The translations under genes and the position numbers were made by a program. Below, in pieces: positions 765 through 19,960 of a stretch of 64,000 bases of DNA. The notes beneath the pieces are model-generated. The model was not told the origin of the DNA and ran no database searches. It was given only the letters and a program-made list of their open reading frames with translations. How positions within the stretch are numbered: position 1 is the first letter of the stretch; the number at the start of each line of letters is the position of its first letter. Where the stretch lies: assembly GCF_900066015.1 (NCBI RefSeq), contig NZ_LN890655.1, positions 3,326,726 to 3,390,725 of the forward strand. The letters are read 5' to 3'. Source of the stretch: Candidatus Promineifilum breve. Lineage in GTDB: Bacteria > Chloroflexota > Anaerolineae > Promineifilales > Promineifilaceae.

Positions 765-2276
765 ATGAACGTCGAACCACAAGACGATGATCCGTTGGCT
801 GAACTGCGGCGGCGGGCCACCCTGCGCGAGTTTACCTTTGTCTCGGGCGCGCCCGTGGTCGGCGGCCTGATGGCCCGGCTGCGCGCCGCCTGGAACAGCG
901 TGGCGACCAAGTGGCAGGCCCGGCCGGTGATGGCCCAGCAATCGGCCTTCAACCGGGCGCTGGCCGACTGGCTGGCCCAACCGCCAAACGCGGCCGAGGT
1001 GGACGAGCGGCTCATCGCCCAGGATCACCGGCAAACGGCTTTAAGCGGCGAGATGGCCCGGCTGACGGCGCAGGCGCGGTGGGCGCGCGGCGAGCGAGCC
1101 GAACGACGCCCGCGCCTGGCCTATTTCAGTCCGCTGCCGCCGTCGCCCAGCGGCATCGCCGACTATAGCGCCGAGTTGCTGCCCCATCTGGCCGAACTGG
1201 CCGACATCACCCTTTTCAGCGATCAGCCCGAAGTTGACATCCTCGGCTTACCGAGCTACGCGACGGGCGACTACCCGGCCCTGCGCCACGCCTTCGACCT
1301 GCCCCTCTACCAGATGGGCAACAGCGACCGGCACGAGGCGATGTTTGCGATGATGATGCAATATCCGGGGGTTGTCGTCTTGCACGATTATTTCCTCCAC
1401 CACTTCATCCACTACCACACCGTCGGGCGCGGCGACTGGCCCGGCTACGAGCGCGAAATGGCCTACGCCGGTGGGCGCGACGGCCGCCGCCGGGCGCGCG
1501 CCATACGCGACAATCAGGCCACGTTCCCCTTGTTCGATGAGCCGCTCAACGCCCGCCTGATCGATGCCGCCGTGGGCCTCATCGTCCATAGCGACTTTGC
1601 CGCGCGGCGAGCGCGCGCCGCCCGGCCGGGTTTGCGCGCGGCGGTCATCGCCGCGCCGGTTGCGCCCCACCCCGGCCGATCGCGGCGCGCGCAGTTGGGC
1701 GTGGCCGATGACGCCGTGATCTTCGGCAGCTTCGGCCAACTGACGGCCGAAAAGCGGATCGACACTGCCCTGCGCGCCTTTCGCCGGGTGCGCGAGCAGT
1801 ATCCCCACAGCCGCTTCCTGCTGGCCGGCGGGGCGCAGCCCGACATTGACCTGCCGCGCCTGCTGGCCGATCTGCAACTGGCAGATGCGGTCATCGCCAT
1901 CGGTCACGTGGCCGAACTGGGCGAGTTCGTGGACTGGATCCACACCGCCGACGTGGTGGTCAATCTGCGGCAGCCGACGGTGGGCGAGACCTCGGCCGTC
2001 GCCCTGCGGGCCTTGGCCGCCGCCCGGCCGGTCGTCGTCTATGACCACGGCTGGTACGCCGAACTGCCGGACGCGGTCGCGCTGAAGGTGCCGCCGGGGG
2101 ACGAGGACGCGCTCTTCGCGGCCATGGAACGGCTGGCGGCGTCGGCCGCGTTGCGCCGCGCGTTGGGCGAGGCGGGCGAGGCTTACATTCAGGCCCATCA
2201 CCAGCCACAACAGGTCGCCCGCGCCACCATCGATTTTGTGCTGACGATCCTGGCAGGTGGGTCCGCCTATGCCTGA
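765..2276 (+). CDS. GT4-type glycosyltransferase with an extra N-terminal module
   Basis: 503 residues. A typical GT-B glycosyltransferase begins near residue 118 (LAYFSPLPPSPSGIADYS, the N-terminal Rossmann opening). The C-terminal donor domain includes FGSFGQLTAEKRIDTAL, LLAGGAQPDIDL and the VNLRQPTVGETSAVALRALA nucleotide-sugar region. Residues 28-72 (APVVGGLMARLR followed by a Q-x3-N pattern) are not part of the GT fold and match a module in the two proteins at 4439-5815 and 5837-6337. No strong ribosome binding site precedes ATG 765. The 3' end overlaps the next gene by 8 nt, indicating translational coupling. Donor and acceptor sugars cannot be predicted. Confidence 0.85.
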   Translation: MNVEPQDDDPLAELRRRATLREFTFVSGAPVVGGLMARLRAAWNSVATKWQARPVMAQQSAFNRALADWLAQPPNAAEVDERLIAQDHRQTALSGEMARLTAQARWARGERAERRPRLAYFSPLPPSPSGIADYSAELLPHLAELADITLFSDQPEVDILGLPSYATGDYPALRHAFDLPLYQMGNSDRHEAMFAMMMQYPGVVVLHDYFLHHFIHYHTVGRGDWPGYEREMAYAGGRDGRRRARAIRDNQATFPLFDEPLNARLIDAAVGLIVHSDFAARRARAARPGLRAAVIAAPVAPHPGRSRRAQLGVADDAVIFGSFGQLTAEKRIDTALRAFRRVREQYPHSRFLLAGGAQPDIDLPRLLADLQLADAVIAIGHVAELGEFVDWIHTADVVVNLRQPTVGETSAVALRALAAARPVVVYDHGWYAELPDAVALKVPPGDEDALFAAMERLAASAALRRALGEAGEAYIQAHHQPQQVARATIDFVLTILAGGSAYA

Positions 2277-4437
2277 GTGGTTCTTCGGGGCGCTCCTGGT
2301 CGGTTTGATCGTTGCCGGGGGTATGTTGGCCGTCCGGCTCTTTCTCCCACGCGGTGCGCCGCTGCATCCCACCCACCTCTTTGCCGGGTTGGCGTTGGGT
2401 CTCATCGTCACCGGCTGGCTGGCCCTCGTCCTGGCCGAACTGAACCGATTCTTTCTCGGCGCGCTTCTGGCGATCCTGGTGGTCGGGGTGGCCGCCCTGC
2501 TCTTGTGGTCGTGGCGACGGCGCGGCGGGGATGCGCTCGCCCCGCCGGCCCCGGAAGCGCCACTGGCGCGGTGGGAATGGGCCATGCTGGCCGTATGGCT
2601 GGCTGCCGCGGCGTGGCTCTTCTTCCGGCCCCACGAGTACGTCTATGGCGGCGCGGATGCCGGGGTCTACATCAGCCTGGGGGCGGAGATCGCCCAACAC
2701 GGGGGCTTCCGCATCGACGATGGGACGTTGGCCGGATTGTCGCCGGAGATGCGCGCCGCCGTCCTGCGCCCGCTACCCGACACGCCGGGGGCGGCCGCCT
2801 ACCTGCTACCCGGCTTCTACGTCAGCGACGCGGCTGCCGGCCGCCTGATACCACAGTTCTATCCGCAGCATCCCGTGTGGCAGGCGGTGGCTTTTGCCGT
2901 GGCCGGTGGCATGGACGACGCGGCTGGGATCGACGCCCAATTGCTGCTGACCGGCCTGTGGATGGCGCTGGGGACGCTGGCCGTCTACCTGACGGCGCGC
3001 GACCTGGGCGGGCCAGTGGTGGGGGCGCTGGCGCTGGCCGGGTTGTCGCTCTCGGCCTTGCAGGTGTGGTTCGGCCGCTACCCAACCAGCGAGGCCCTGA
3101 CCCAATTCCTGCTGTGGGTGGGGGTGTGGAGCGGCGGCCGGTGGCTGGGCGACCGCTCCCCGACGCGGCTGTGGGCCTTCCTGGCCGGTTGCGCCCTGGG
3201 GGCCGTCTTCCTGACGCGCATCGACGCGCTGGTTTTGCTGCCGGTCTTCGCCCTGGTGTTGGTCTGGCGCTGGGCGCGGGGCTGGGCGCGGGCCGATAAC
3301 TGGTTCGCCATCCCGTTCGTGGCTCTGGTCGTCCAGTCGCTGCTGCACGGCTATTTCCTGAGCGGGCCCTATTTTTACGAGACGGTCGGCTATGGCCTGC
3401 TTCTCCTGACGAGGCTGTGGCCGTTGTTGCTGGTCGCCATCTTCATTGGCGGGGCGGGGCTGTGGTGGCTGGCGCGCCTAACCGCCCGGCGCGGCGCGCC
3501 GGAGCGGTGGCGACGGCCGATTTTAGGCGGGCTGGTCGCCGCGTTGCTGCTCTATGCCCTTTACGGCTGGTTCCTGCGACCGATATTGCCGGCCGTCCTG
3601 TCCCGGCCCGACTTTTTTAGCGGCGGCCAAATTCCAGTGACGAACCACGAGAACTGGTTGCGCCTGGGCTGGTATCTGTCGCCGCTGGGGGTGTGGCTGG
3701 GCGTGCTGGGCGGCTGCCTGCTGCTGTGGCGCGTCGAGCGGCGGACCTTGCTGGTCGTGGCGATCGGCTGGCTGTTCGCCGTGGTTTATCTGTGGAATAT
3801 CAGCGCCAACCCCCACCACATCTACGTCATGCGCCGTTACGCGCCGGTCGTCGCGCCGTTTTTTGTCCTGGGCGCGGCCTACCTGCTGGGCCGTTGGCCG
3901 CTCGACCGGGCGGGCTGGGCCGGTTATGAGGCCCGCGCCGGCCGCCGGCTGCCCTACCCGCTGGGGCCGGTGCTGCTGGCGGCGGCGGCCGTCGTCTGGC
4001 TGGCCGGGCTGGGCTGGTCGGCGCGCGGCTTTGTCAGTCAGGTCGATCACGCCGGGCTGGCCGGGCAACTGGACCAACTGGCCGGGCGGCTGCCGGACGG
4101 GGCGGTGCTGCTGTTCAACGACCAGTCGCCGGTCGGCCAGGGGGACGTATGGGGCACGCCGCTGCGCTTCATCTACGGCCACGACGCCTTCGCCCTGCGC
4201 CAACCGCCGGCCACTGTGGCCGCGCCGCTGGTAGAGAGCATCAAAACGTGGCAGAATAGCGGCCGGCCCGTCGTCTGGGTGGGCGATAGCGCCTGGCTGG
4301 ATGACCAACAGATTGCGTATCGAACGGAGCAGATAACATTGCAAAGCGAGCGGCTGGAGAGCAGCTACGATCACAAGCCCACCGCCATTTGGGTTGAGAC
4401 CGTTCTTCTGACGCTGAATTATCTGCAAGCGGAGTAA
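2269..4437 (+). CDS. Polytopic membrane protein, probable GT39/PMT-like glycosyltransferase
   Basis: 722 residues from ATG 2269, which overlaps the upstream stop; AGGTGGG lies 8 nt ahead of it, so this start is preferred over an in-frame GTG at 2257. It has about a dozen or more hydrophobic segments and an early periplasmic-type loop carrying EYVYGGADAGVYISLG, whose Asp/Glu position resembles the first loop of lipid-linked-sugar-dependent (GT-C) enzymes. The C-terminal ~150 residues after the last membrane helix form a soluble domain. Its place between a cytoplasmic glycosyltransferase and an FkbM methyltransferase supports a role in transferring sugars across or at the membrane. The family is not certain; a plain membrane protein of unknown function is the alternative. 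Confidence 0.65.
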   Translation: MPEWFFGALLVGLIVAGGMLAVRLFLPRGAPLHPTHLFAGLALGLIVTGWLALVLAELNRFFLGALLAILVVGVAALLLWSWRRRGGDALAPPAPEAPLARWEWAMLAVWLAAAAWLFFRPHEYVYGGADAGVYISLGAEIAQHGGFRIDDGTLAGLSPEMRAAVLRPLPDTPGAAAYLLPGFYVSDAAAGRLIPQFYPQHPVWQAVAFAVAGGMDDAAGIDAQLLLTGLWMALGTLAVYLTARDLGGPVVGALALAGLSLSALQVWFGRYPTSEALTQFLLWVGVWSGGRWLGDRSPTRLWAFLAGCALGAVFLTRIDALVLLPVFALVLVWRWARGWARADNWFAIPFVALVVQSLLHGYFLSGPYFYETVGYGLLLLTRLWPLLLVAIFIGGAGLWWLARLTARRGAPERWRRPILGGLVAALLLYALYGWFLRPILPAVLSRPDFFSGGQIPVTNHENWLRLGWYLSPLGVWLGVLGGCLLLWRVERRTLLVVAIGWLFAVVYLWNISANPHHIYVMRRYAPVVAPFFVLGAAYLLGRWPLDRAGWAGYEARAGRRLPYPLGPVLLAAAAVVWLAGLGWSARGFVSQVDHAGLAGQLDQLAGRLPDGAVLLFNDQSPVGQGDVWGTPLRFIYGHDAFALRQPPATVAAPLVESIKTWQNSGRPVVWVGDSAWLDDQQIAYRTEQITLQSERLESSYDHKPTAIWVETVLLTLNYLQAE

Positions 4438-4438
4438 T

Positions 4439-5815
4439 ATGGAGCTTGACGAACACGACCAGGCCGCGGCCGACGCGGTTGACATTGAAAACGTGATGCA
4501 GGAAGTGCGGCGCGAGATATTGGGCCGCCGCCTGCCGGGCCAGGTGGCCTTGTCCGACATAACCGACACCTTACCGCGCGAATATTACGAGCACCTCTTC
4601 CGCGCCGGGCTGGCCCAGAGCCGGCTCGACGTGGCCGTGATGGTCGCCCCCAGCCGCGCGCCGCTGGTGGGGCCGATCATCGATCGCCTCCGGGTGAAGT
4701 TCCATCAACTCATCGTCTACTACATGAACCTGTTCGTCGAGAATCAGTCCAAGGTGAACGCCCATATGTTGTCGGCGTTGGGTCTGTTGGGCCGGCCGGT
4801 GAGCGATAGCCAACTGGCGAGCGAACATTATGCCGGCGGGCGACGGCTGGAAGAAGGTCAGACGTTGGACCAATGGGCCACCCCCGACGACGTGTATGCC
4901 TGCTATCGCCTGCTGCTGGACCGCGAGCCGGATCAGCATGGCTGGGAGTACTGGTCGGGCCTGGTGACCCGGCAGCACCTGACCCGCGCCTACCTGGTCG
5001 ATTCCTTCGTCAACGGGCACGAATTCCAGGCCAAACAAGCCGAACGCAACACGCCTTTGCTGGTTGAGCTGCCCGAGTTCAAGATGTACGTGCGGCTGAA
5101 CGATCAATTCATCGGCGCGGCCATCGCCCGCGACAAGCAGTATGAGCCGCACGTAACCCGTGCCCTGCGCGACACGCTCGGCCGCGGCGCGACCTTCATC
5201 GACGTGGGGGCCAACATCGGCTACTTCGCGCTGCTGGCGGCCAAGATCGTCGGCCCGGCGGGGCGGGTCGTGGCCTTCGAGCCGAACCCGGCCAATTGTG
5301 ATTTGCTGCGCCGTAGCATCGAAGCCAACCAATTCGGCACGATTACCCTACACCAGAATGCCGTGGCCGAGGCCAGACAAACCATCCACTTCGCCACGGC
5401 GGGTATCGACAGCAACGGCCGGATGGTCAACCCCGCCGAGGCGGCGGCCGAGGTCGTGGCCCTGCCCACGGTCGAGGCCGTCACGCTCGATGAGACGCTG
5501 GCCGATCTGGGACGCATCGATGTGATCAAGCTCGACGTGGAGGGGGCCGAGGCGCGGGCCTGGCGCGGGATGCAGGCCGTTATCGCCCGTCACAAGCCGA
5601 CGCTCATCTTCGAGTTCTCGCCCATCCTGTTGCGCCACACCAGTGAAGTGGAACCCGACGCCTTTCTGCGCGAGGTGAGCGAGCGGTATGACCTGTTCAT
5701 CATTTCGCCGGTGGGCACGACGGCCGACAAGCCGGACAGCGTGGCCGCCATCGTCGCCCGTCAGGCCGAATCCGGCCAGACTCATCTCGACCTCCTGGCC
5801 CGGCCGCGGTCTTAG
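4439..5815 (+). CDS. FkbM-family methyltransferase with DUF4214 and shared N-terminal module
   Basis: 458 residues, starting 1 nt after the previous stop. Order of domains: an N-terminal module (EVRREILGRR at 22-31, then 73-117 with APLVG and NQSKVN); a DUF4214 segment at about 148-197 (YRLLLDREPDQHGWEYW); then an FkbM methyltransferase with FIDVGANIGYF at 253-263 (SAM loop), FEPNP at 280-284 and a later IDVIKLDVEGAE motif. FkbM enzymes methylate sugar hydroxyls, and DUF4214 is common on proteins tied to surface glycans, so methylation of the glycan built by this cluster is likely. Substrate unknown. Confidence 0.88.
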   Translation: MELDEHDQAAADAVDIENVMQEVRREILGRRLPGQVALSDITDTLPREYYEHLFRAGLAQSRLDVAVMVAPSRAPLVGPIIDRLRVKFHQLIVYYMNLFVENQSKVNAHMLSALGLLGRPVSDSQLASEHYAGGRRLEEGQTLDQWATPDDVYACYRLLLDREPDQHGWEYWSGLVTRQHLTRAYLVDSFVNGHEFQAKQAERNTPLLVELPEFKMYVRLNDQFIGAAIARDKQYEPHVTRALRDTLGRGATFIDVGANIGYFALLAAKIVGPAGRVVAFEPNPANCDLLRRSIEANQFGTITLHQNAVAEARQTIHFATAGIDSNGRMVNPAEAAAEVVALPTVEAVTLDETLADLGRIDVIKLDVEGAEARAWRGMQAVIARHKPTLIFEFSPILLRHTSEVEPDAFLREVSERYDLFIISPVGTTADKPDSVAAIVARQAESGQTHLDLLARPRS

Positions 5816-5836
5816 CCGACAGCGCGGCGATAGCCT

Positions 5837-6337
5837 ATGACCAACACAACCATGACGACACAATCACGGCCGCCCGGCGACCCCTGGATCGAGATCCACG
5901 ACGAAGTGATCACGTCGGCCGAACTGGTGACCGAGGTCGAGCGCCGGGTGGCGCGGCGGCGGGCCGAATTAGGCGCGGTGAACCTGGTCTTCCCGACCTT
6001 TGGCCACGTGTCCACCTTCCCCGAACCGTCGCCGGGCGGCCGGATCAGCCCCGACCTCTACTACTACCTGAAGCAGGCCAACCAGACCCCGGCCACGGCC
6101 GTCGAGCCGCTGCTGGCCCCGTCGCCGGCCACGCAACTGCCGGTCGTCGGCCGCTTCTGGCAGCGGGTGCGCGGCCAGGTGCATAGCCTGGTGCTCTTCT
6201 ACGTCAATCGCTCGGTGCGCGACCAGAACCGCCTCAACGTCAACCTCATCAGCGCCCTCAACGAACTGACCCGCGTCGTCCAGGAACAGGCGGCCGAGAT
6301 CGATGCGCTGCGGGCCGAACTGCGCCGCCGCGACTGA
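5837..6337 (+). CDS. Orphan protein made only of the shared N-terminal module
   Basis: 166 residues, no enzyme domain recognised. Residues 66-144 align by eye with residues ~47-117 of the preceding FkbM protein: YY-x-L, then an APS/P-x-VG stretch (LPVVGRFWQRVR at 101-112) and a Q-x3-N helix (130-134). The C-terminal 25 residues (VVQEQAAEIDALRAELRRR) form a heptad-type coiled coil. The early EVERRVARRRAELG mirrors EVRREILGRR of its neighbour. The segment may be a helical membrane-interface or oligomerisation element that tethers the cluster's enzymes; that is inference. The gene is in the glycan operon, between the FkbM gene and a glycosyltransferase. Confidence 0.8.
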   Translation: MTNTTMTTQSRPPGDPWIEIHDEVITSAELVTEVERRVARRRAELGAVNLVFPTFGHVSTFPEPSPGGRISPDLYYYLKQANQTPATAVEPLLAPSPATQLPVVGRFWQRVRGQVHSLVLFYVNRSVRDQNRLNVNLISALNELTRVVQEQAAEIDALRAELRRRD

Positions 6338-6356
6338 GCGCCCGGCCACCCACACC

Positions 6357-7412
6357 ATGAGCGGGCGCGTTCTGCACCAATTCCTGACCGGGGCCACCTC
6401 GGGCGACGCCATCACCGATCAGGCGTTGCTCATGCAGCGCTGGCTGCGCGAGGCGGGCTTCACGTCGGAGATTTACGCCTGGCATCTGCACCCCAGCATG
6501 GAGGGGGCCGTGCGCCCCTTGCCCACCTATCACCACACGCGGGGCGAGGCGTGGGCCATCTACCACCACAGCATCGGCTCCGACGTGCCCGACTTCCTGC
6601 TGCGCCAGGCGATGCGCCTCATCCTGGTCTATCACAACATCACCCCGGCCGACTATTTCACCGGCAGCGACCCCCTGCGCGCCCATCTGGCCCGGCAGGG
6701 GATCGAGCAATTGGCGGTGCTGCGGCCGATCACGGGGCTGGCTCTGGCCGTCTCAGCCTACAACGAGGCCGATTTGATCGCCGCCGGCTATGAGCAGACG
6801 GCCGTGCTGCCCATCTGCTTGCAAGCCGAGCGGTATGAGTCCGCCGAACCGCTGCCGCCTGTCCCCGGCCCGCGCCTGTTGTTCATCGGCCGGCTGGCTC
6901 CTAACAAGCGGCAGGAAGACCTGGTGAAGCTGCTCGCCTGCCTGCGCCGCATCCGCCCCACGGCCCATCTGACCCTGCTGGGCGACCGTTGGGAGATCGG
7001 CTACGACCGCTGGGTCGAAGGACTGGCCGCCGAAATGAGCGTGGGCGACGGCCTGACGCTGACGGGCAAGGTGTCGCAGGCGGCGATGGTGGCCCATCTG
7101 CGGGCGGCCGATCTCTTCGTGTCGATGAGCGAGCACGAGGGCTTCGGCGTGCCGCTCATCGAGAGCATGGTTCTGGGGCTGCCGGTGCTGGCCTATGGCG
7201 CGGCGGCCGTGCCGGAGACGATGGGCGGCGCGGGCCTGTTGTTCCATGACAAGGACTACGAGGCGTTGGCCGAACTCATCGATCTGTTGCTCGACGACCC
7301 GGCCCTGCGGCAGCGCATCATCGCCGGGCAGCGGGCCAGGGCGCGGGCCTTTTTGGAGCCGGCGGTGCGCGGGCAATTCATCGAGCGCCTGGGCGAGGTG
7401 GGACTGTGCTAA
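6357..7412 (+). CDS. GT4-type glycosyltransferase (paralogue of 8598-9689)
   Basis: 351 residues from ATG 6357; an upstream in-frame ATG at 6303 would lie inside the previous gene and add a non-conserved tail. The N-terminus (VLHQFLTGATSGDAITDQ) and the loop YHHSIGSDV are closely matched by the gene at 8598. The donor domain has FIGRLAPNKRQEDLVKLL and the classical acidic motif SEHEGFGVPLIESMVLGLPV. Retaining transfer from an activated sugar is expected from the family. It ends overlapping the next start, so the genes are co-translated. Sugar specificity cannot be read from the sequence. Confidence 0.88.
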   Translation: MSGRVLHQFLTGATSGDAITDQALLMQRWLREAGFTSEIYAWHLHPSMEGAVRPLPTYHHTRGEAWAIYHHSIGSDVPDFLLRQAMRLILVYHNITPADYFTGSDPLRAHLARQGIEQLAVLRPITGLALAVSAYNEADLIAAGYEQTAVLPICLQAERYESAEPLPPVPGPRLLFIGRLAPNKRQEDLVKLLACLRRIRPTAHLTLLGDRWEIGYDRWVEGLAAEMSVGDGLTLTGKVSQAAMVAHLRAADLFVSMSEHEGFGVPLIESMVLGLPVLAYGAAAVPETMGGAGLLFHDKDYEALAELIDLLLDDPALRQRIIAGQRARARAFLEPAVRGQFIERLGEVGLC

Positions 7413-8605
7413 AGGGCAAGCGCGTGGCTCTGGTGGTGCAACGCTACGGCGAGGAGGTCAACGGCGGGGCCGAGATGCTGGCCCGCTGGCTGGCCGAGCG
7501 GCTGGCGAACATGGTGGAGACCCGGGTCATCACCACTTGCGCCGTGGATTATCTGACCTGGGACAACGTCTATCCGCCCGGCGAAAGCGAGTTGAACGGC
7601 GTGCGCGTGCTGCGTTTCGCCGTGGACGCGCCGCGCCATCCTGACTTCGCCCGGCGCACGGTGGCCCTGTTCGAGGAGAAGCGCACGCTGTTCGACGAGT
7701 TGCAATGGATGAAGGATCAGGGGCCCTATTCCACCGACCTGCTCGATTACATCCACGACGCCCGCGACTTATTCGACCTGTTCATCTTCGTGACCTATCT
7801 CTACCCACCGACGTTTTTCGGCCTGCCGCTGGTGGCCGACAAGGCTATCCTGGTGCCCAACGCCCATGATGAGCCGTATCTCCGCCTGCCCATCATGCGG
7901 CCCCTCTTCCACATGCCGCAACTGATCGTCTACAACACCGAGACGGAGCAAGCGCTGGTCAATGAGGTGATGCACAACCGGTACGTGCCCCAGATCGTCA
8001 CCGGCGTGGGCATCAACGTGCCCGACAACGTATCGGCGGCCCGCTTCCGGCAGAAGTTCGGCATCGACGGCTCCTTCGTGGTCTACGTCGGCCGGGTCGA
8101 TTCGGCCAAAAACGTGCCCGAACTGCTCGACCATTTCGCCCGCTTCCGCGACGAGACCGACCACGATACCAGGCTGGTGCTCATCGGCAAGTCGAGCCTG
8201 GAAATGCCGGTCCGGCCCGACATTATTCCCCTGGGCTTCGTCAGCGAGGAAGACAAATTCGACGCCATCCGCGCCGCCGACGTGCTGGTGATGCCCTCGC
8301 TCTATGAAAGCCTGTCGCTGGTGGCGATGGAGGCCTGGTTGATGGGCGTGCCCACGCTGGTCAACGGCCAGTGCGAGGTGCTCAAATCGCAGACCCGGCG
8401 CAGCAACGGCGGGCTGTATTACTACTCCTACGATGAATTCGCGGCGGCGCTGCAACGCCTGCTCGACGACGCGCCGCTGCGCGCCCAACTCGGCCGCCAG
8501 GGTCGGGCCTTCGTGGCCGCCAACTATAGTTGGGAGGTGGTCATGGCTAAGTATCGCGCCATCCTGGAGACGCTGATGCCGCGGCCGAGGGAGGGGCATG
8601 GCTGA
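7406..8605 (+). CDS. GT4-type glycosyltransferase
   Basis: 399 residues. The start is GTG 7406, overlapping the preceding stop, with GAGGTGGG just upstream. The N-terminus VALVVQRYGEEVNGGAEML is the glycine-rich acceptor-domain opening typical of GT4. The C-terminal domain shows VVYVGRVDSAKNVPELL and MPSLYESLSLVAMEAWLMG, the donor-binding E-x7-E region. It lies between the two paralogous glycosyltransferases at 6357 and 8598 but is only distantly similar to them. The stop overlaps the next ATG by 8 nt. Confidence 0.88.
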   Translation: MLKGKRVALVVQRYGEEVNGGAEMLARWLAERLANMVETRVITTCAVDYLTWDNVYPPGESELNGVRVLRFAVDAPRHPDFARRTVALFEEKRTLFDELQWMKDQGPYSTDLLDYIHDARDLFDLFIFVTYLYPPTFFGLPLVADKAILVPNAHDEPYLRLPIMRPLFHMPQLIVYNTETEQALVNEVMHNRYVPQIVTGVGINVPDNVSAARFRQKFGIDGSFVVYVGRVDSAKNVPELLDHFARFRDETDHDTRLVLIGKSSLEMPVRPDIIPLGFVSEEDKFDAIRAADVLVMPSLYESLSLVAMEAWLMGVPTLVNGQCEVLKSQTRRSNGGLYYYSYDEFAAALQRLLDDAPLRAQLGRQGRAFVAANYSWEVVMAKYRAILETLMPRPREGHG

Positions 8606-9689
8606 GCGCGCCCTGCATCAATTCACCGAGGGGGCCTACATCGGCGACGCGGTCAGCGACCAGGTTTTCGCCATCCAGCGCTGGCTGCACGATTTGGGCT
8701 TCGCCTCGGAGGTCTACGCCGAGCGCATCCAACCCGAACTGACGGGGCGGGTGCGGCCGGCCCGCGACTACCGGCCGGGGCCGGGCGAAAGCTGCCTCAT
8801 CCACCACCACGCCGTCGGCTCCGAGATCGCCGAGCGGCTGATGGCGATTGGCCTGCCGCAACTCCTCATCTACCACAACATCACCCCGCCCGAGTTCTTC
8901 GCCTTCACCGACCCGATTCTGGCGACCCATCTGCACAAGGGCCGCCGCCAACTGGAGGCCATGCGGCCCAACACGCTGTTGGCCCTGGGCGATTCCGGCT
9001 ACAACGCCCGTGAGTTGGCCGCCCTGGGCTACGACAAGACCGGCGTGTTGCCCATCGTCCTGGACGAAAGCCAGTTCCGCGCGCCGCTTAACGAGACGCT
9101 GGCCGCCGAATGCGCCGCCGCCCGGCCGCTGGTGCTGTTCGTCGGCCGCTTCGCGCCCAACAAGCGGCAGGAAGATCTGCTGAAGCTCCACCACTGCCTG
9201 CGGCGCATCCTGCCCACGGCGCGGCTGGCGCTGGTCGGCAATACCGATTTCACCGATTACGTGGCCTGGCTGCGGGCGCTGGCCGGCGATTTGGGGCTGG
9301 GCGATGACGCCGTGCGCATCACCGGCCACGTGAGCCACCGCGACATGATCACCTACTACCGCCGCGCCGACGTGTACGTGTCGATGAGCGAGCACGAGGG
9401 CTTCGGCAAGCCGCTGATCGAGAGCATGTATTGCGGCTTGCCGGTCGTGGCCTACGCTTCGACGGCCGTGCCCGACACGCTGGGCGAGGCGGGCATCCTC
9501 TTCCACCGCAAGGATTTCGAGGGGCTGGCCGAACTGATCGCCGCGCTGCTGGCCGATGAGCCGTTGCGGCGGCGGGTCATCGCTCGCCAGACCGGGCGGG
9601 TGCGCGCCTTTCTGGAGCCGCAGGTACGCCGGCAATGGGAAGCGCATTTGCAATCGGCCGGCCTCCTGCCGGGTGGGGCGGGGCAATGA
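8598..9689 (+). CDS. GT4-type glycosyltransferase (paralogue of 6357-7412)
   Basis: 363 residues. It aligns almost end to end with the product of 6357-7412: ALHQFTEGAYIGDAVSDQ at the N-terminus, HHHAVGSEI, LIYHNITPPEFF, FVGRFAPNKRQEDLLKL and SEHEGFGKPLIESMYCGLPV. The conserved FVGRFAPNKRQEDL and SEHEGFG motifs place it in GT4. The pair probably arose by duplication and now adds related sugars in the same glycan. It overlaps its neighbours at both ends (ATGA-type overlap at 9686). Confidence 0.88.
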   Translation: MAERALHQFTEGAYIGDAVSDQVFAIQRWLHDLGFASEVYAERIQPELTGRVRPARDYRPGPGESCLIHHHAVGSEIAERLMAIGLPQLLIYHNITPPEFFAFTDPILATHLHKGRRQLEAMRPNTLLALGDSGYNARELAALGYDKTGVLPIVLDESQFRAPLNETLAAECAAARPLVLFVGRFAPNKRQEDLLKLHHCLRRILPTARLALVGNTDFTDYVAWLRALAGDLGLGDDAVRITGHVSHRDMITYYRRADVYVSMSEHEGFGKPLIESMYCGLPVVAYASTAVPDTLGEAGILFHRKDFEGLAELIAALLADEPLRRRVIARQTGRVRAFLEPQVRRQWEAHLQSAGLLPGGAGQ

Positions 9690-10954
9690 GCGACACCCCC
9701 CTCCACGTGGCGTTTGTTACCCCGGCCTACCCGCCGCTGATGGGCGGTGGCGAGCGTTACGCCGCGGCGCTGGCTCGCGGGCTAGTGGCCGCCGGGGCGC
9801 GGGTCACGGTCGTCACCAGCGCCGCCACAACCGAGGCCGACCTGTGGCAAGGCGCGGCCGGCGCGTCGGATGCCATCGAGGACGGCGCGCGCGTCATCCG
9901 CTTGCCCGTGTTGCCCACCCCCCACGGCCGGCGCGGTCTGCTGTTGTGGCGCAAGGCGATGGTGCTGCTGTCGGCCTTGCCCGGCGATCAGGCGGCGTGG
10001 CTGACGGGCATGGCCCGGCGCGTGCCCGCCATCGACGGGCTGGCCGAGACGCTGGCCGGGTTGGCCGACGTTGACGTCTTTCATGCGTTTAACCTGTCCT
10101 GGGAACGGGCGATGGTGGCCGCCCACGCCCACAGTCGCGAGGTGGGCCGGCCGCTGTTCGTCACCCCCTTCCTGCATCTGGGCGAGGGCCACGACCGCGT
10201 GGCCCGCAACTCAACGATGGATCACCAGTTGCGCATCATGCGCGAAGCCGACCGCCTGCTGGTGCTGACGCGCGTCGAGGCCGACGGGCTGGCCCGCTAC
10301 GTCTATGGGCCGGAGCGCATCTCCGTCATCGGCGGCGGGGCCGACGCGCCGCCGGCCGACTTCGCCGCCTCGCCCTATTTCGCCGCCGACCACCCCGAAG
10401 CGCGCGGTGAATTCGGCCTCTACATCGGCCGCCACTCCTTCGACAAGGGCGCGCTCCATGCCGCCGACGCCGTGCGCGTGTTGCGGCGGCGCGGGCGGGA
10501 TATTGCCCTGCTGCTCATCGGCGCCTCCACGCCGGAGTTCGAGCGCTACCGGCGGCGGCTGTCGCCCGAAGATCGTGCCGCCATTCGGCCGCTGGGCGCG
10601 CTGTCCGACCGCGACAAGCACGCCGTGCTGAACCGGGCCAAATTCCTCATGTTGCCGTCGCGCAGTGATTCGTTCGGCATCGTCCTGCTGGAAGCGTGGG
10701 CGCATGGCGTGCCGGTCATCGCCGCCCGCGCCGGGGGCATTCCCGGTGTGGTCGACGACGGCGCGACGGGGCTGCTGGTGCCCTTCGCCGATGTGGATAA
10801 CCTGGCGATGGCCGCCGAGCGCATCCTGGGCGACCCGATGTTCGCCGAGCGTCTGGGCCGGCAGGGGCGCGAAAAGCTGGTGGCCGGCTATCATTGGGAC
10901 GTCGTCGTCGAACGGGTGCTCGGCCAGTACCGCGCTCTGCTGGACAAGTCGTAG
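9686..10954 (+). CDS. GT4-type glycosyltransferase
   Basis: 422 residues from ATG 9686, which forms an ATGA overlap with the upstream stop; an in-frame extension to 9635 is inside the previous gene. It opens with VAFVTPAYPPLMGGGERYAA, the GT4 acceptor-domain signature, and carries YIGRHSFDKGALHAADAV and PSRSDSFGIVLLEAWAHGVP in the donor domain. The RAGGIPGVVDDGATGLLVP stretch is typical of the family's C-terminus. A soluble or peripheral membrane enzyme acting on the growing oligosaccharide is expected. Confidence 0.9.
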   Translation: MSDTPLHVAFVTPAYPPLMGGGERYAAALARGLVAAGARVTVVTSAATTEADLWQGAAGASDAIEDGARVIRLPVLPTPHGRRGLLLWRKAMVLLSALPGDQAAWLTGMARRVPAIDGLAETLAGLADVDVFHAFNLSWERAMVAAHAHSREVGRPLFVTPFLHLGEGHDRVARNSTMDHQLRIMREADRLLVLTRVEADGLARYVYGPERISVIGGGADAPPADFAASPYFAADHPEARGEFGLYIGRHSFDKGALHAADAVRVLRRRGRDIALLLIGASTPEFERYRRRLSPEDRAAIRPLGALSDRDKHAVLNRAKFLMLPSRSDSFGIVLLEAWAHGVPVIAARAGGIPGVVDDGATGLLVPFADVDNLAMAAERILGDPMFAERLGRQGREKLVAGYHWDVVVERVLGQYRALLDKS

Positions 10955-10964
10955 TCGCCACGCC

Positions 10965-12248
10965 ATGCGTATCCTCCACCTCGTCCATCAGTACCCGCCC
11001 GACCACCTGGGCGGGACGGAACTCTATACGCGGGCGCTGGCCCGGCGGCAGGCGGCGGCCGGGAATGAGGTGGCCGTGTTCTGTCCGGAGGAAGGGGATG
11101 ATAGCGGCGAACCGGCCGTCGAGGATGGCGTGCGCGTCTATCGGGCGGGCGGTGGGCGGCGCGGGCGGCTGGCCGTTTTCCTGAGCCTGCTGGGTTCGGG
11201 CCGGCTGTCGGCGGCCTTCGATGCCGTACTGGCCGCCGAGCGGCCCGACGTTGTCCATGTGCAACATCTCATGGGCTTGCCCGTGGGCCTCATCGACACA
11301 CTGCGCGCCGCGGGCATCCCCTACGTCATCACGCTCCACGATTACTGGTACGGCTGCGCCAACGCCCAGCTATTGACCAATTACGATGCGTCCCTGTGCG
11401 CCGGGCCGAACGCGCGGTTCACCAATTGCGGCCGCTGCGCCCTGGCCCGCGCCGGGTTGGGCGGGCCGGCCGCGGCCGGATCGTTGCCCGCCCCGCTGAT
11501 GGCCCGGCGCTACCGGCTGCTGCGCGAGGTTTTCAGCGGCGCGGCCCAGGTGATGGCCTCCACACCGTTTGTGCTGCGCGCTTATGGCGGCATGGGTTTC
11601 CCCCTGGAGAAGGCTCGCGTCCTGCCCCTGGGCATTGACGTATCGGCCGCCGACGTGGCCGCCGCCCGGCGCGCCCGCGACCAAAAAGCGCCGGATGGGC
11701 CTTTTCGTGTCGGCTACGTCGGCGGGCTGAGCCGGCAAAAGGGCATTCATGTTTTGGTGGCGGCCATCAATCGGCTGCCGGCGGGCGTGACCTGCGCCAT
11801 CTATGGCCCGACCGACGCCTTTCCGGAGTACGTGGCCGAGTTGCGGCGGCTGGCGACCCACCCCGGCATCCGCTTCATGGGGCCGGTGGAGCGCGCGGCG
11901 CTGTGGCCGGCGTTGGGCGAGCTGGACGTGCTGGTCGCGCCGACGCTGTGGTACGAGACCTACGCGCTCATCGTCCACGAGGCATTTGCCGCCGGCCTGC
12001 CTGTGGTCGCCTCGCGGATCGGCGTGCTGCCGGATGTGGTGCGCGAGGGCGTGGACGGCCATCTCTTTCCGCCCGGCGACGCGGAGGCGCTGTCGGCCAT
12101 CCTGCGCCGTCTGATGGAACAACCGGACGAGCTCGCCGTTCTGCGCGCCGGACAGCCGGCCATCGTCACGATGGACAGCCATGCCGCTGAGATCGATGGC
12201 GTGTATCGCGCATTGCCGGCGGGCGTTAAGCCGATGCTCCGGCGCTAG
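10965..12248 (+). CDS. GT4-type glycosyltransferase
   Basis: 427 residues from ATG 10965; the longer in-frame reading from 10665 only shadows the preceding gene. It begins MRILHLVHQYPPDHLGGTE, a standard GT4 opening. A Cys-rich insert (HDYWYGCANAQLL, then CAGPN and NCGRCALA) is seen in a subfamily of GT4 enzymes and could bind a metal or form disulfides. The donor site has YVGGLSRQKGIHVL and TLWYETYALIVHEAFAAGLP. It is the last gene of the glycosyltransferase run and begins 10 nt after the previous stop. Confidence 0.88.
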   Translation: MRILHLVHQYPPDHLGGTELYTRALARRQAAAGNEVAVFCPEEGDDSGEPAVEDGVRVYRAGGGRRGRLAVFLSLLGSGRLSAAFDAVLAAERPDVVHVQHLMGLPVGLIDTLRAAGIPYVITLHDYWYGCANAQLLTNYDASLCAGPNARFTNCGRCALARAGLGGPAAAGSLPAPLMARRYRLLREVFSGAAQVMASTPFVLRAYGGMGFPLEKARVLPLGIDVSAADVAAARRARDQKAPDGPFRVGYVGGLSRQKGIHVLVAAINRLPAGVTCAIYGPTDAFPEYVAELRRLATHPGIRFMGPVERAALWPALGELDVLVAPTLWYETYALIVHEAFAAGLPVVASRIGVLPDVVREGVDGHLFPPGDAEALSAILRRLMEQPDELAVLRAGQPAIVTMDSHAAEIDGVYRALPAGVKPMLRR

Positions 12249-15489: not shown

Positions 15490-18400
15490 TTAAGGGCAGA
15501 GGGGATTGCCGACGTCGGCCCAGGTGTTGGCCTGAGTGCCGGAGGCCGTGGCCGGGAAGGTGGCCGTGTCGCCGGTGTAGAAGACCTCGGCCATGAGGCC
15601 AAACGGGTTCGTCAGCGCGCCCAGTTCGGCCGTGGCGTCGATGGACAGTTCGACCGCCCATTGCCCGCTGCCCGGCTCGCCCACGACCGATGTCCAGTTG
15701 GTGGAGGTGAAGTTGGAGTTCCATGCCTGGCCGTCGGCGTTGCTGCCAATGCCGGCCCATATCAATCGCGAACCGTCGCGGTTGACCTGGAAGAAGCGAT
15801 CGGCCGTGTCCGGGTCGCCGCCGTTGTTGGTCGTGTCGATGTAGAGGCGGGCCGAATCGGCCGGGTCGTTCACGTTGTCATTGATGAGATAGGCGAAATA
15901 GAGGCGGCTCGCGTCGCGCACGCCGTAGACGCGGACGATGCGCTCCGGCCCCACCACCGCCGGCTGGAAGGTGAAGAGGGGCGTGCCCGGCCACTCGGTG
16001 CCGATGTTGAGCGTGCCGTCGAGAGTGGGCGGGGCCAGCACACAGGTCAGAGTGATGGCCGGCGCGGCGGTCGTGGGCGTGGGCGAGATGGTCGCGGTCG
16101 GGGTGGCCGTCGGCGTGGCCGTGGCCGTGCCGGTGGCGGTCACCGTGGCGCTGGCCGTGCCCGTCGGGGTGATCGACGGGGTGGCCGTCCAGGTGGCTGT
16201 CGGCGGCAGCACCGTCAGCGTCGGCGTCTGGGGCGTCACGGTAGGCGGATTGGGCACCAGCGGGTCAGTCCCCTGGGCCACTTCCAGCCCGTCGGAAATG
16301 CCGTCGCCGTCGCCATCGGGCGAGCGCGGGTTGGTCTTGTGTGTGTTGACCTCGTCGAAATCGCTCAGGATGTCGGCGTCGGTGTCGCGGTTGCGCGGGT
16401 CGGTGGAGTAGATGAGCACCTCATCGCCGTCGTTCAGGCCATCGGCATCGGTGTCGGGATTATTGTTTTCGGTGTTCAGGAGGGATTCCTGCCTATCGGC
16501 CAAACGGTCGCCGTCGGTATCCCCATCCACGGTCTGGGTGCCGGCCACGTTGGTGGCGGCGCTGATCTGGGTCGCCACGACCATCGTCTGCGCCGCCGCG
16601 ACCGAGGTCTGGGTGGCGGCCATGAATTCAAACGAAAGCGTGGGCGTGGGCGTGGCGGTGGCGCCGATGCCCAGGAAGCGCCCCCAATTGGAAAACAACA
16701 ACATACCGCCTAACGCGCAGAGGAAGATGGCTAAAAAGGCCGCGCCATAGACCACGGGGGAGGGCAACAGGGCGCGCACGTGGGCCTCGCCGGGCAGCGC
16801 GCGGCGGCCGCCCTCGGCCCCCACCACCTCGACCTCGAAGGGGTAAACGTCGCCCTCGCCGAACCAATTCGTCTCGCGCGGCTCCAGCGCCAACTCGATA
16901 TTGGCCGATTGGTTGGGTTGCAGGGTGATGCGGTCGCGCTCGCCGCGAAAGCGGATGACTTGTTGCAGATCGCGGCCGGTCACCTTGAACTCGGTCGCCT
17001 TATTGCCGTTGTTGTGAATGGTCACCAGCGTGCGCCCCGGAACGCGCAGCTCGGTCGGCTCCATGACCGCCTCGAAGCTCACGAAGCCGCTGACGGTCAG
17101 GGCGGCGCTGACGCCGATCTTGGCCTCCGGGTAGTGCTGCGAGACCACCTCGAACCGCACGCGCTGCCGGCCGGAGGGAACGCCTCGCCCGCGCGGCGGG
17201 CTGATGGTGATGGGCACGGAGACCGTCTGGCGCGGCGGCACGGTGATGAACTCGGCCGGTTCCTCGACCCAACTCGGATCGAGACCCCGCACGCGCACCG
17301 TCACCTTGTCTTCCACGTCGCCGCGATTCTCCACGTCGACTTTCACCTCGACCCGCTGGCCGGGGTCGGCGGTGATGGTGTTGCGGGCCAGGTGGAGGGC
17401 GAGCGGCGCGTCGGCCCCGGCCGGCGGCAGGGTCGGTTGTTCGGCCACCACGGCCCCGGACGAAGAGGCCGAGCCGGACGCGGGCGGCGCGGCCGAAGGT
17501 GGTGCGGCCGAAGGTGGTACGGCCGATGGCGGTACGGCCGAGGCAACCGCCCCAGCCCCCAACCCGATCAATCCGGGCGTGATGGGCGCGGAAATCGGCT
17601 CGACCTGTTTGGCCTGGGGGTCGGCCACCGGCGTCTCCGGCCCCTCCAGCAGCATCTCATACGGGCCGATGCGCAACAGGGAACCAACGGATAGGGGCGT
17701 CGGCTCTTCCGGCCGCAGGCGGTGCTCATTGAGCCACGTGCCATTGACGCCGCCCAGATCGACCGCCTCCCAGCCCAGCGAAGTGGCCTGCAAGCGCGTG
17801 TGGTGGCGCGAAACGCCGTCGGCGGGCAGCACAATGTCGTTGTCCAGATTGCGCCCCAGGGTGATGACCGCCCGCGTCAAGGGCACAATGCTGTCCTGGT
17901 GGCCGGGGGTGTGGATGTGCAGCTCAAAACCGGCCGGCGGCTCGGCCACCTGATCGAGGATGTCCAGTTCCTGATGCAGCATGACCCGCGTCGGCAAGCC
18001 CTCCAGGGCCACGAAGGCGCTCCGCAGGGCGTCGGCCATCTCCGCGCCGCTGGCGAAACGATCAGCCGGCGATTTAGCCAGGGCGCGCACCAGCAGCGAA
18101 TCGATAATCGGCGGCACTTCGGGCCGCAGGCTGCTGACGGGCGGCGGCTGAACGCCGTTGCGATGGGCGGCGATGGCCTCGGACAGCGTCTGGAAGGTGA
18201 ACGGCATCTTGTTGGCGATCAACTCGTAGAGCACGACGCCCAGCGAGTAAAGGTCGGAGCGGCTATCCAGTTCGCGCCCCTCGCATTGCTCCGGCGACAT
18301 GTAGGTCGGTGTGCCGACGGTGGCCCCACTCTGGGTCAGGCTGACCCCCTCTTGCAGCTTCACCAGCCCGAAATCGGTCAGCAGGGCGCGGAACGGTTGC

Positions 18401-18876
18401 GCGCCGGCCTCGTCCGGCCGGTTGAGCCGCTTGAGGATGATGTTGCCCGGCTTCACGTCGCGATGGATGATCTTGCGCTGGTGGGCATAGTCGAGCGCCT
18501 CGCCGATCTGGATGCCGATTTGCAGGCATTGGACGAGCGGTAGATATTTTTGCAGCCGTTGCAACCGCCGCAAATGGTCGCGCAGGCTGCCGCCGTCGAC
18601 GTACTCCATGCCGATGAACAGCCCCTGGTCGGAGTCGCCGAAGTCGTAGACGCGGACGATGGAGGGATGGTCGAGTTGGGCGGCCGTGCGCGCCTCCTGC
18701 ACCAGCCGCTGGCGAAACTCTTCCTTGTTGGCGAAGTGGCTGTGCATCAGCTTGATCGCCACCTGCCGCTCCAGATTGAGATCGGCGGCGCGATAGACCG
18801 TGCCCATGCCGCCGTCGCCCAGCAAGGCGTCGAGGCGATACCGTTTATTCAGGGTTTGACCGATAAGGCTGGTCAT
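15490..18876 (-). CDS. Receptor-like Ser/Thr protein kinase: kinase, FHA, Ig-like, TM, TSP3 repeats, CBM9-like
   Basis: 1128 residues. The kinase occupies ~13-290: glycine loop GDGGMGTVY at 20-28, Lys 42, HRDVKPGN at 138-145 and TDFG at 167-170. An FHA domain spans ~330-410 (GRNLDNDIVL, SRHH, NGTWLN). A Pro/Ala/Ser linker and two Ig-like repeats (~487-700) precede a membrane segment (~708-728). Beyond it lie Asp-rich thrombospondin-type-3 calcium repeats (~784-875), a Thr/Pro linker and a C-terminal ~185-residue beta-sandwich resembling CBM9/DOMON domains (LDGTLNIGTEWPG, then RLYFAYLINDNV). The layout suggests an outside sugar or ligand sensor coupled to an inside kinase, although the Ig-like repeats fall on the cytoplasmic side of the single predicted helix. 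TAGGAGGG precedes the start. Confidence 0.9.
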   Translation of the reverse strand: MTSLIGQTLNKRYRLDALLGDGGMGTVYRAADLNLERQVAIKLMHSHFANKEEFRQRLVQEARTAAQLDHPSIVRVYDFGDSDQGLFIGMEYVDGGSLRDHLRRLQRLQKYLPLVQCLQIGIQIGEALDYAHQRKIIHRDVKPGNIILKRLNRPDEAGAQPFRALLTDFGLVKLQEGVSLTQSGATVGTPTYMSPEQCEGRELDSRSDLYSLGVVLYELIANKMPFTFQTLSEAIAAHRNGVQPPPVSSLRPEVPPIIDSLLVRALAKSPADRFASGAEMADALRSAFVALEGLPTRVMLHQELDILDQVAEPPAGFELHIHTPGHQDSIVPLTRAVITLGRNLDNDIVLPADGVSRHHTRLQATSLGWEAVDLGGVNGTWLNEHRLRPEEPTPLSVGSLLRIGPYEMLLEGPETPVADPQAKQVEPISAPITPGLIGLGAGAVASAVPPSAVPPSAAPPSAAPPASGSASSSGAVVAEQPTLPPAGADAPLALHLARNTITADPGQRVEVKVDVENRGDVEDKVTVRVRGLDPSWVEEPAEFITVPPRQTVSVPITISPPRGRGVPSGRQRVRFEVVSQHYPEAKIGVSAALTVSGFVSFEAVMEPTELRVPGRTLVTIHNNGNKATEFKVTGRDLQQVIRFRGERDRITLQPNQSANIELALEPRETNWFGEGDVYPFEVEVVGAEGGRRALPGEAHVRALLPSPVVYGAAFLAIFLCALGGMLLFSNWGRFLGIGATATPTPTLSFEFMAATQTSVAAAQTMVVATQISAATNVAGTQTVDGDTDGDRLADRQESLLNTENNNPDTDADGLNDGDEVLIYSTDPRNRDTDADILSDFDEVNTHKTNPRSPDGDGDGISDGLEVAQGTDPLVPNPPTVTPQTPTLTVLPPTATWTATPSITPTGTASATVTATGTATATPTATPTATISPTPTTAAPAITLTCVLAPPTLDGTLNIGTEWPGTPLFTFQPAVVGPERIVRVYGVRDASRLYFAYLINDNVNDPADSARLYIDTTNNGGDPDTADRFFQVNRDGSRLIWAGIGSNADGQAWNSNFTSTNWTSVVGEPGSGQWAVELSIDATAELGALTNPFGLMAEVFYTGDTATFPATASGTQANTWADVGNPLCP

Positions 18877-18913
18877 CGATCCCTCCTAGCCATCCAGTTG
18901 CCCGGCGCCGGCC

Positions 18914-19960
18914 CTAAGCCCGCGCCAGGACGTTCTCCAGCGCGTCCAGAAACACCCGCACCTCGTCAGCGCCGATCCAGCAGTGGGTGACGGCGCGAAA
19001 GCCGCGCCGCCCGTTGGTTCCCAGCCAGACGTTGGCCGATTGGCGCAGACGGTCGGCCACTTCGTCGGCCGATAGCGCCACGTCGTCGCTCAGGTCGAAG
19101 AAGACCATATTGGTGCGCACCATCTCACCGTTGACGCCCACACCGGGCAGCCGCGCCAGCCCCTCGGCCAGCCGGCGGGCGTGGGCGTGGTCGTCGGCCA
19201 GCCGGTCGATCATCTCGTTCAGGGCCACCAGACCGGCCGCGGCCAGCACGCCCGCCTGGCGCATCCCGCCGCCCAGCGATTTGCGGGCGCGACGGGCGCG
19301 ATAAATGAAGTCGGCCGAGCCGCACAACACCGAGCCGACGGGCGCGCACAGCCCCTTGCTGAGGCAAAACGTCACTGAATCGACGTGGCGGGTGATCTCC
19401 GTCGCGTCGATCTGTTGGGCCACGGCGGCGTTGAACAGCCGCGCCCCGTCCATGTGCACCGCCAGGCCGTTTTGCCTGGCCACGGCGGCGATCTCGGCGA
19501 AATAAGCCGGCGGCAGAGGGTAGCCGTGTTTGGCCCCATAACTGTTTTCGACCAGCACCAGGCGGCTGCGCGGCAGGTGGGGGTCGTCCTCGCGCACGGC
19601 GTCGGCCACCGCTTCGGGATCCATTCGGCCGTAGGCATCGGTCGGCAATGGATGGGGGATGACGCCGCCCAGCGCGGCCATGCCCCCCGCCTCCCAGGAA
19701 TAGACGTGACTATCCGCGCCGAGGATGGCCTCCTCGCCGCGCCCGGCGTGGGCCAGCACGGCGCACAGGTTGCCCATCGTGCCGCTGGCGACGAACAGGC
19801 CGGCCTCCTTGCCGGTTCTGGCCGCGGCCAGCGCCTCCAGTTCGTTCACCGTCGGGTCTTCGCCGTACACGTCATCGCCGACCGGCGCGGCGGCCATGGC
19901 CGCCCGCATGGCCGGCGTGGGCCAGCTAACGGTGTCGGAGCGGAAGTCGATCCTGTCCAT
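18914..19960 (-). CDS. ltaE: Low-specificity L-threonine aldolase
   Basis: 348 residues, matching the family's usual size. This PLP enzyme cleaves threonine or allo-threonine to glycine and acetaldehyde. Visible marks are DFRSDTVSWPTPAMR at the N-terminus, GDDVYGEDPTVNELE, the HMDGARLFNAAVA segment (Asp contacts the PLP ring) and SVTFCLSKGLCAPVGSVL with the PLP Lys. The kinase gene begins 37 nt downstream on the same strand, so they may share a transcript, although their functions are not obviously linked. Confidence 0.93.
   Translation of the reverse strand: MDRIDFRSDTVSWPTPAMRAAMAAAPVGDDVYGEDPTVNELEALAAARTGKEAGLFVASGTMGNLCAVLAHAGRGEEAILGADSHVYSWEAGGMAALGGVIPHPLPTDAYGRMDPEAVADAVREDDPHLPRSRLVLVENSYGAKHGYPLPPAYFAEIAAVARQNGLAVHMDGARLFNAAVAQQIDATEITRHVDSVTFCLSKGLCAPVGSVLCGSADFIYRARRARKSLGGGMRQAGVLAAAGLVALNEMIDRLADDHAHARRLAEGLARLPGVGVNGEMVRTNMVFFDLSDDVALSADEVADRLRQSANVWLGTNGRRGFRAVTHCWIGADEVRVFLDALENVLARA

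What the first reader, a model, noticed from the sequence alone, without database searches (positions are those of the whole stretch)
15490..18876. Kinase with FHA, Ig-like, TSP3 and CBM9-like domains in one membrane protein
A cytoplasmic Ser/Thr kinase with FHA domain is fused through a membrane helix to calcium-binding TSP3 repeats and a C-terminal beta-sandwich of the CBM9/DOMON type. This architecture would let an external carbohydrate signal drive phosphorylation, beside a large glycan cluster. The odd point is that the Ig-like repeats precede the helix and so would be cytoplasmic unless a second membrane segment exists.
Basis: partly seen in the sequence, partly recalled or inferred. Interest (0 to 1): 0.65.

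Follow-up and report, generated by a model that had tools for sequence, protein, structure and literature searches.

The report
Membrane kinase with CBM9-like outer sensor
This gene encodes a bacterial receptor-type protein kinase, kept as one copy by nearly all members of one family of Chloroflexota, that carries outside the cell a domain shaped like a sugar-binding module but without its usual sugar clamp; it is an unusual new version of a known kind of receptor, and what it senses is unknown.

Summary
The 1128-aa ORF (15490-18876, minus strand) encodes an intact Ser/Thr kinase, an intact FHA domain, two Ig-like domains, one membrane helix, TSP3 calcium repeats, a Thr/Pro-rich stalk and a C-terminal CBM9/DOMON-fold domain. 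Pfam misses that last domain in all 22 homologues tried, but profile comparison with CBM9 (97%; shuffles at most 11%) and structure matches support it. Two invariant cysteines bracket it; it lies outside the cell. The Ig pair is cytoplasmic; no second helix exists. Orthologues occur about once per genome in this family (40 of 52 genomes, 16 of 17 good ones) and nowhere else sampled. 'External carbohydrate sensor' is only partly supported: the loop carrying one CBM9 clamp residue is missing, a different conserved aromatic loop is present, and the neighbouring glycosyltransferase cluster is not a conserved neighbour (a threonine aldolase gene is). The same kinase-FHA-Ig-helix chassis carries other ectodomains in relatives, and unrelated kinases elsewhere in the class carry true CBM9_1 domains. 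Best reading: a receptor kinase with a divergent CBM9-superfamily sensor, ligand unknown; a new variant of a known kind.

The parts
15490..18876 (-). whole receptor kinase gene, 1128 aa (includes the stop codon)
   Evidence: orthologues full length
18882..18887 (-). AGGAGG Shine-Dalgarno-like sequence, 5 bases before the ATG
   Evidence: sequence read
18052..18840 (-). Ser/Thr kinase domain, residues 13-275, catalytic residues intact (K42, E61, D140, N145, D168)
17665..17865 (-). FHA domain, residues 338-404, phosphothreonine-binding residues intact (G341, R342, S356, H359, N378, G379)
16762..17397 (-). two Ig-like domains, residues 494-705, cytoplasmic side
   Evidence: (FixG_C and NPCBM_assoc in 24 of 24 members), AF2 pLDDT 75.7, Foldseek to HYDIN/CEP192-type Ig
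16699..16755 (-). single transmembrane helix, residues 708-726
   Evidence: hydropathy in P0001 and the homologues
16237..16527 (-). TSP3-type calcium-binding repeats, residues about 784-880, four D-x-D-x-D motifs
16054..16236 (-). Thr/Pro/Ala-rich stalk, residues 881-941
15493..16053 (-). C-terminal CBM9/DOMON-fold domain, residues 942-1128
   Evidence: hhalign, Foldseek and VIA-align of a low-confidence model
16042..16044 (-). Cys945, invariant (25 of 25 sequences), proposed disulfide with Cys1127
15496..15498 (-). Cys1127, invariant (23 of 23 sequences)
15691..15759 (-). family-specific conserved loop, residues 1040-1062 (G-x-G-x-N-x-D...W...S..W), largely an insertion relative to CBM9; candidate ligand site
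   Evidence: conservation; insertion seen
18914..19960 (-). threonine aldolase (Beta_elim_lyase) gene 37 bases upstream on the same strand; the only conserved neighbour found

Best explanation
It is a single-pass receptor Ser/Thr kinase. Shown by sequence: the kinase and the FHA domain are intact and, with a pair of Ig-like spacer domains, lie on the cytoplasmic side; one helix crosses the membrane; outside, TSP3 calcium-binding repeats and a Thr/Pro-rich stalk hold up a CBM9/DOMON-fold domain bracketed by two invariant cysteines. Inferred: the outer domain binds a cell-surface or environmental ligand through a family-specific site, most likely the conserved loop 1040-1062, and not through the classical CBM9 sugar clamp. 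Binding or clustering brings kinase domains together, they phosphorylate each other (as in PASTA kinases), and the FHA domain then recruits phosphothreonine-bearing substrates or neighbouring receptors. The ligand may still be a glycan, but that is not shown.
For: All kinase and FHA key residues are invariant in the 24-26 homologues that cover them. There is one membrane helix in essentially all of them, with more K+R on its N-terminal side in 17 of 26 (mean 2.3 against 1.3). The outer domain is under selection: mean identity to the window protein 53%, against 34% for the helix and 47% for the Ig pair. Fold: hhalign Prob 97.4 against CBM9; VIA-align rows 1-10 are all CBM9/DOMON superfamily (Z 7.2-9.6), the next rows at 5.9 or less. 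The cysteine pair is invariant. Nearly always single copy, in 40 of 52 family genomes, 16 of 17 good ones. The chassis is reused with other ectodomains, as expected of a sensor slot. Two other kinases of the class carry a genuine CBM9_1 ectodomain.
Against: No ligand, phosphorylation target or expression is known. The structural model of the outer domain has low confidence (pLDDT 43, two-sequence alignment). The positive-inside signal is weak. Surface kinases can also be constitutive or adhesive. The insertion loop may be structural and not a binding site.
Confidence: 0.62

Rival explanations
1. Classical carbohydrate receptor: the outer domain is a working CBM9 that binds sugar chain ends in the usual aromatic clamp and reports glycans to the kinase.
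For: CBM9 fold; kinases with Pfam-level CBM9_1 ectodomains exist in the same class; a chassis relative in the other sampled family of the order carries a glycosidase-like ectodomain with EVWNEMN and LTELG motifs; a glycosyltransferase run lies in the window.
Against: The loop with Trp71 is deleted in the profile alignment and the Glu77 column is not acidic; a CBM9 lacking that loop (CBM9.1) bound no natural carbohydrate tested (PMC8280721). No Pfam CBM9 hit in 22 members. The glycan genes are not conserved neighbours.
Confidence: 0.12
2. Adhesion or mechanical sensor: the stalk and outer domain tether the cell to its sheath, wall or neighbour in the filament, and force or contact, not a soluble ligand, controls the kinase.
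For: TSP3 repeats occur in surface and cohesion proteins (NCBIfam hits to the TSP3 regions of CglD and MtsD); the genus is filamentous (established knowledge); the locus carries only a Thr/Pro-rich tail in one relative (L132).
Against: The conserved aromatic and charged residues of the outer domain point to specific recognition; no adhesion data.
Confidence: 0.2
3. Redox sensor: the outer domain is a DOMON-type haem b cytochrome, like the cellobiose dehydrogenase cytochrome or ethylbenzene dehydrogenase gamma.
For: These are among the best structural matches of the model.
Against: The domain of the window protein contains no histidine, and no His or Lys column is conserved in 22 members.
Confidence: 0.02

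Closest known systems
PASTA-domain kinases (PknB, PrkC, StkP)
   Same: N-terminal cytoplasmic Hanks-type kinase, single helix, extracellular part that reads the envelope (PMC6213207); the kinase domain is closest to NCBIfam PknB_PASTA_kin
   Different: no PASTA repeats; an FHA and two Ig domains sit between kinase and helix; the ectodomain is TSP3 plus a CBM9/DOMON fold
Mycobacterium PknD
   Same: receptor kinase with a non-PASTA globular ectodomain (PMC6213207)
   Different: beta-propeller ectodomain; to my knowledge no FHA or Ig domains in the chain
FHA-containing Ser/Thr kinases of cyanobacteria and Chloroflexus (PMC1262709)
   Same: kinase and FHA in one chain, phosphothreonine-binding residues kept
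   Different: no Ig pair, TSP3 or CBM9-type ectodomain found in the passages of that survey that were searched
CBM9 modules (Thermotoga Xyn10A CBM9-2, 1I82; CkCBM9.3, 7NWO)
   Same: fold and order of the core motifs
   Different: clamp loop missing, extra conserved loop, end-to-end cysteine pair, kinase context instead of xylanase
Kinase-helix-CBM9_1 proteins found here in G051 (L082) and G071 (L094)
   Same: Ser/Thr kinase, one helix, C-terminal CBM9-fold domain
   Different: no FHA, Ig or TSP3; the ectodomain is a true Pfam CBM9_1

Membership tests
Hanks-type Ser/Thr protein kinase | glycine loop, catalytic Lys, C-helix Glu, HRD Asp, DFG Asp | tested here: met
   Pfam PF00069 E 1.4e-45; residues invariant in 24-26 homologues
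Hanks-type Ser/Thr protein kinase | protein kinase activity on Ser/Thr | not testable with these tools
   needs purified protein
PASTA kinase (PknB/PrkC) | extracellular PASTA repeats | tested here: not met
   no PASTA hit in Pfam; NCBIfam NF033483 scores 293 against a cut-off of 450 and only over residues 5-288
FHA domain | GR, S..H and NG phosphothreonine-binding residues | tested here: met
Bacterial TSP3 repeat | aspartate-rich calcium motifs, score over the cut-off | tested here: met
   PF18884 40.5 bits against 25; four D-x-D-x-D motifs
CBM9 | CBM9 fold / common ancestry | tested here: met
   hhalign Prob 97.4, 150 shuffles at most 11; VIA-align Z 8.4 to 1I82 and 8.0 to 7NWN, though from a low-confidence model
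CBM9 | score over the Pfam CBM9_1 curated cut-off | tested here: not met
   none of 22 members; own-genome search with PF06452 finds only another gene
CBM9 | aromatic sugar clamp (Trp71/Trp175 in TmCBM9-2) | tested here: not met
   8-column gap at the Trp71 loop; the Trp175 position could not be aligned safely
CBM9 | carbohydrate binding | not testable with these tools
   needs binding assays
DOMON haem b cytochrome | axial Met/His or Met/Lys haem ligands | tested here: not met
   no His in the domain, no conserved His or Lys column

The most novel reading that the evidence does not exclude
A family-wide receptor-kinase chassis (kinase-FHA-double intracellular Ig-helix-TSP3) with an interchangeable outer sensor, whose main version carries a new ligand-binding subfamily of the CBM9/DOMON superfamily with its own binding loop, and which acts together with the threonine aldolase encoded just upstream.
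Probability: 0.25. Interest if true: 0.6.

Novelty: new variant of a known kind. Interest (0 to 1): 0.42.

Why it matters
Extracellular signals are known for very few bacterial receptor Ser/Thr kinases. A single-copy receptor, kept in nearly every good genome of a family of Chloroflexota whose namesake genus is filamentous, with a defined outer domain that can be made on its own, gives a direct way to find one. The interchangeable ectodomains on one intracellular chassis are natural experiments on what the kinase reads, and an intracellular Ig pair resembling eukaryotic ASH/HYDIN domains is uncommon in a bacterial kinase.

Tried and rejected
Pfam and PDB sequence searches of the C-terminal domain alone gave nothing significant. 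Haem/redox reading rejected (no His). A second membrane segment for the Ig pair was looked for and not found (isolated extra windows just over the threshold in single homologues such as L050 and L052, not shared). A conserved link to the glycosyltransferase cluster was looked for and not found. A fusion artefact is rejected by orthologues in many separate assemblies. Literature searches for kinase plus CBM9 found no paper on such a protein. Orthologue counts in fragmented MAGs are lower bounds.

Full report
OBSERVATION. The minus-strand ORF 15490-18876 encodes 1128 residues. It starts with ATG preceded by AGGAGG. Pfam finds a kinase (13-275), an FHA domain (338-404), bacterial TSP3 repeats and Ig-like matches around 500-700. 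Hydropathy gives one membrane helix, 708-726. The C-terminal 187 residues have no meaningful Pfam match, alone or in any of 22 homologues, and no significant PDB sequence match.

HOMOLOGUES. A search with the C-terminal domain found it in 26 of 59 related genomes, all in the same family. The ORFs, complete or nearly so, were recovered for most; they align over the whole length at 41-75% identity with the same order of domains. With a profile, 40 of 52 family genomes have it, 16 of 17 among the good ones, nearly always once. In 298 genomes of the class and 400 of the phylum no other full match appears, only weak or partial ones in other proteins. One same-genus genome has a contig of the same length with the gene at the same coordinates as a record named Promineifilum sp., so the window most likely belongs to that genus of Chloroflexota (lineage); the species was not tested.

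INSIDE THE CELL. Kinase residues (glycine loop, Lys42, Glu61, Asp140, Asn145, Asp168) and FHA residues (GR, S..H, NG) are invariant. The region 494-705 matches Ig-like families in 24 of 24 members; AF2 predicts two beta-rich domains (pLDDT 75.7), and the best Foldseek matches include ciliary central-apparatus Ig domains and CEP192, which work inside cells. No second helix is shared by the homologues, so the Ig pair is cytoplasmic.

OUTSIDE THE CELL. After the helix come four TSP3 motifs, a Thr/Pro/Ala-rich stalk and the C-terminal domain. This domain has two cysteines invariant in all complete members; apart from kinase Cys198 and position 720 in the helix these are the only widely conserved cysteines. 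A disulfide joining the two ends is the natural reading and fits an extracellular place. K+R counts around the helix lean the same way but weakly.

WHAT THE OUTER DOMAIN IS. Sequences matching Pfam CBM9_1 were collected from the same class. Profile-profile comparison gives Prob 96.7, and 97.4 when two solved CBM9 sequences are added, over 137 columns; 150 column-shuffled profiles reach at most 11, a reversed profile 1.5, the Ig alignment 0.5. A two-sequence AF2 model is weak (pLDDT 43, pTM 0.42), yet the first ten VIA-align rows are all CBM9 or DOMON-type proteins (Z 7.2-9.6), with unrelated Ig domains at 5.9 and below. The fold is thus well supported though not proven. The sugar clamp of CBM9 (Trp71 and Trp175 in Thermotoga CBM9-2, Tyr89 and Trp191 in CkCBM9.3; PMC8280721) is not reproduced: the loop with Trp71 is a gap and the Glu77 column is not acidic (the role of Glu77 is from my own knowledge). 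Instead the domain has an insertion at 1040-1062 with invariant G1042, G1044, D1048 and W1052 and nearly invariant N1046, S1058 and W1061. Haem binding is excluded by the absence of histidine. Conserved acidic positions around 1014-1026 may hold calcium (inference; solved CBM9s bind three calcium ions).

NEIGHBOURS. A run of glycosyltransferase genes lies at 0.7-12.2 kb, but it is not a conserved neighbour in related loci. The gene found beside the kinase throughout the family is a threonine aldolase, directly upstream on the same strand in 23 of 26 loci and also in G005, G013, G022 and G102. The meaning of this link is unknown.

EVOLUTION OF THE ARRANGEMENT. The kinase-FHA-Ig-helix chassis occurs with other outer parts: a glycosidase-like domain after TSP3 repeats in the other sampled family of the same order (L134; weak GH113 hit E 0.006, motifs EVWNEMN and LTELG), a GON domain (L136), a FecR-like domain at the aldolase-linked locus of G022 (L123, the contig ends there), only a Thr/Pro tail at the aldolase-linked locus of G013 (L132), and nothing (L130). 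Separately, two other families of the class have kinase-helix-CBM9_1 proteins with Pfam scores above the cut-off. So the coupling of a CBM9-fold domain to a kinase is seen on more than one kinase lineage, and the outer part behaves as an exchangeable sensor slot.

MECHANISM. Most likely a receptor kinase: the outer domain binds or senses something at the surface, kinase domains come together and cross-phosphorylate, FHA recruits phosphothreonine partners. The anatomy is shown by sequence; activation, ligand and targets are inferred by analogy with PASTA kinases (PMC6213207).

VERDICT. Real, conserved and unusual, but of a known kind: a new variant of the bacterial receptor Ser/Thr kinase. The carbohydrate reading should be held at low confidence until binding is measured.

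Noticed in passing
18914-19960 (-): Threonine aldolase gene 37 bases upstream of the kinase gene; the pair is kept across the family even where the outer domain differs.
   Followed up: partly
L134:8325-11777 (-): Kinase of the same chassis, from the other sampled family of the order, with a glycosidase-like (weak GH113) extracellular domain: a possible enzyme or pseudo-enzyme sensor.
   Followed up: partly
L082:1495-3405 (-) and L094:220-2007 (+): Two other Ser/Thr kinases with a genuine Pfam CBM9_1 ectodomain; no paper on this combination was found in the library.
   Followed up: partly
L115:1215-5888 (-): Large protein (1558 aa) with a QELGHNLGRKH stretch that looks like a metalloprotease motif (not tested) and a distant copy of the same CBM9/DOMON-like domain.
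   Followed up: no
own genome, contig C2, 58-81 kb and 227-251 kb (L066-L069): Ser/Thr kinase genes are clustered on the 1.0 Mb contig, most with one predicted helix after the kinase and different remaining parts.
   Followed up: no
L060:7014-10379 (+): The orthologue in G034 is split over three frames (440, 122 and 558 aa): frameshifts or assembly errors.
   Followed up: no
765-12248 (+): Run of six GT4-type glycosyltransferase ORFs with a FkbM methyltransferase; the 726-aa ORF at 2257-4437 between them has no Pfam match at 1e-5.
   Followed up: partly
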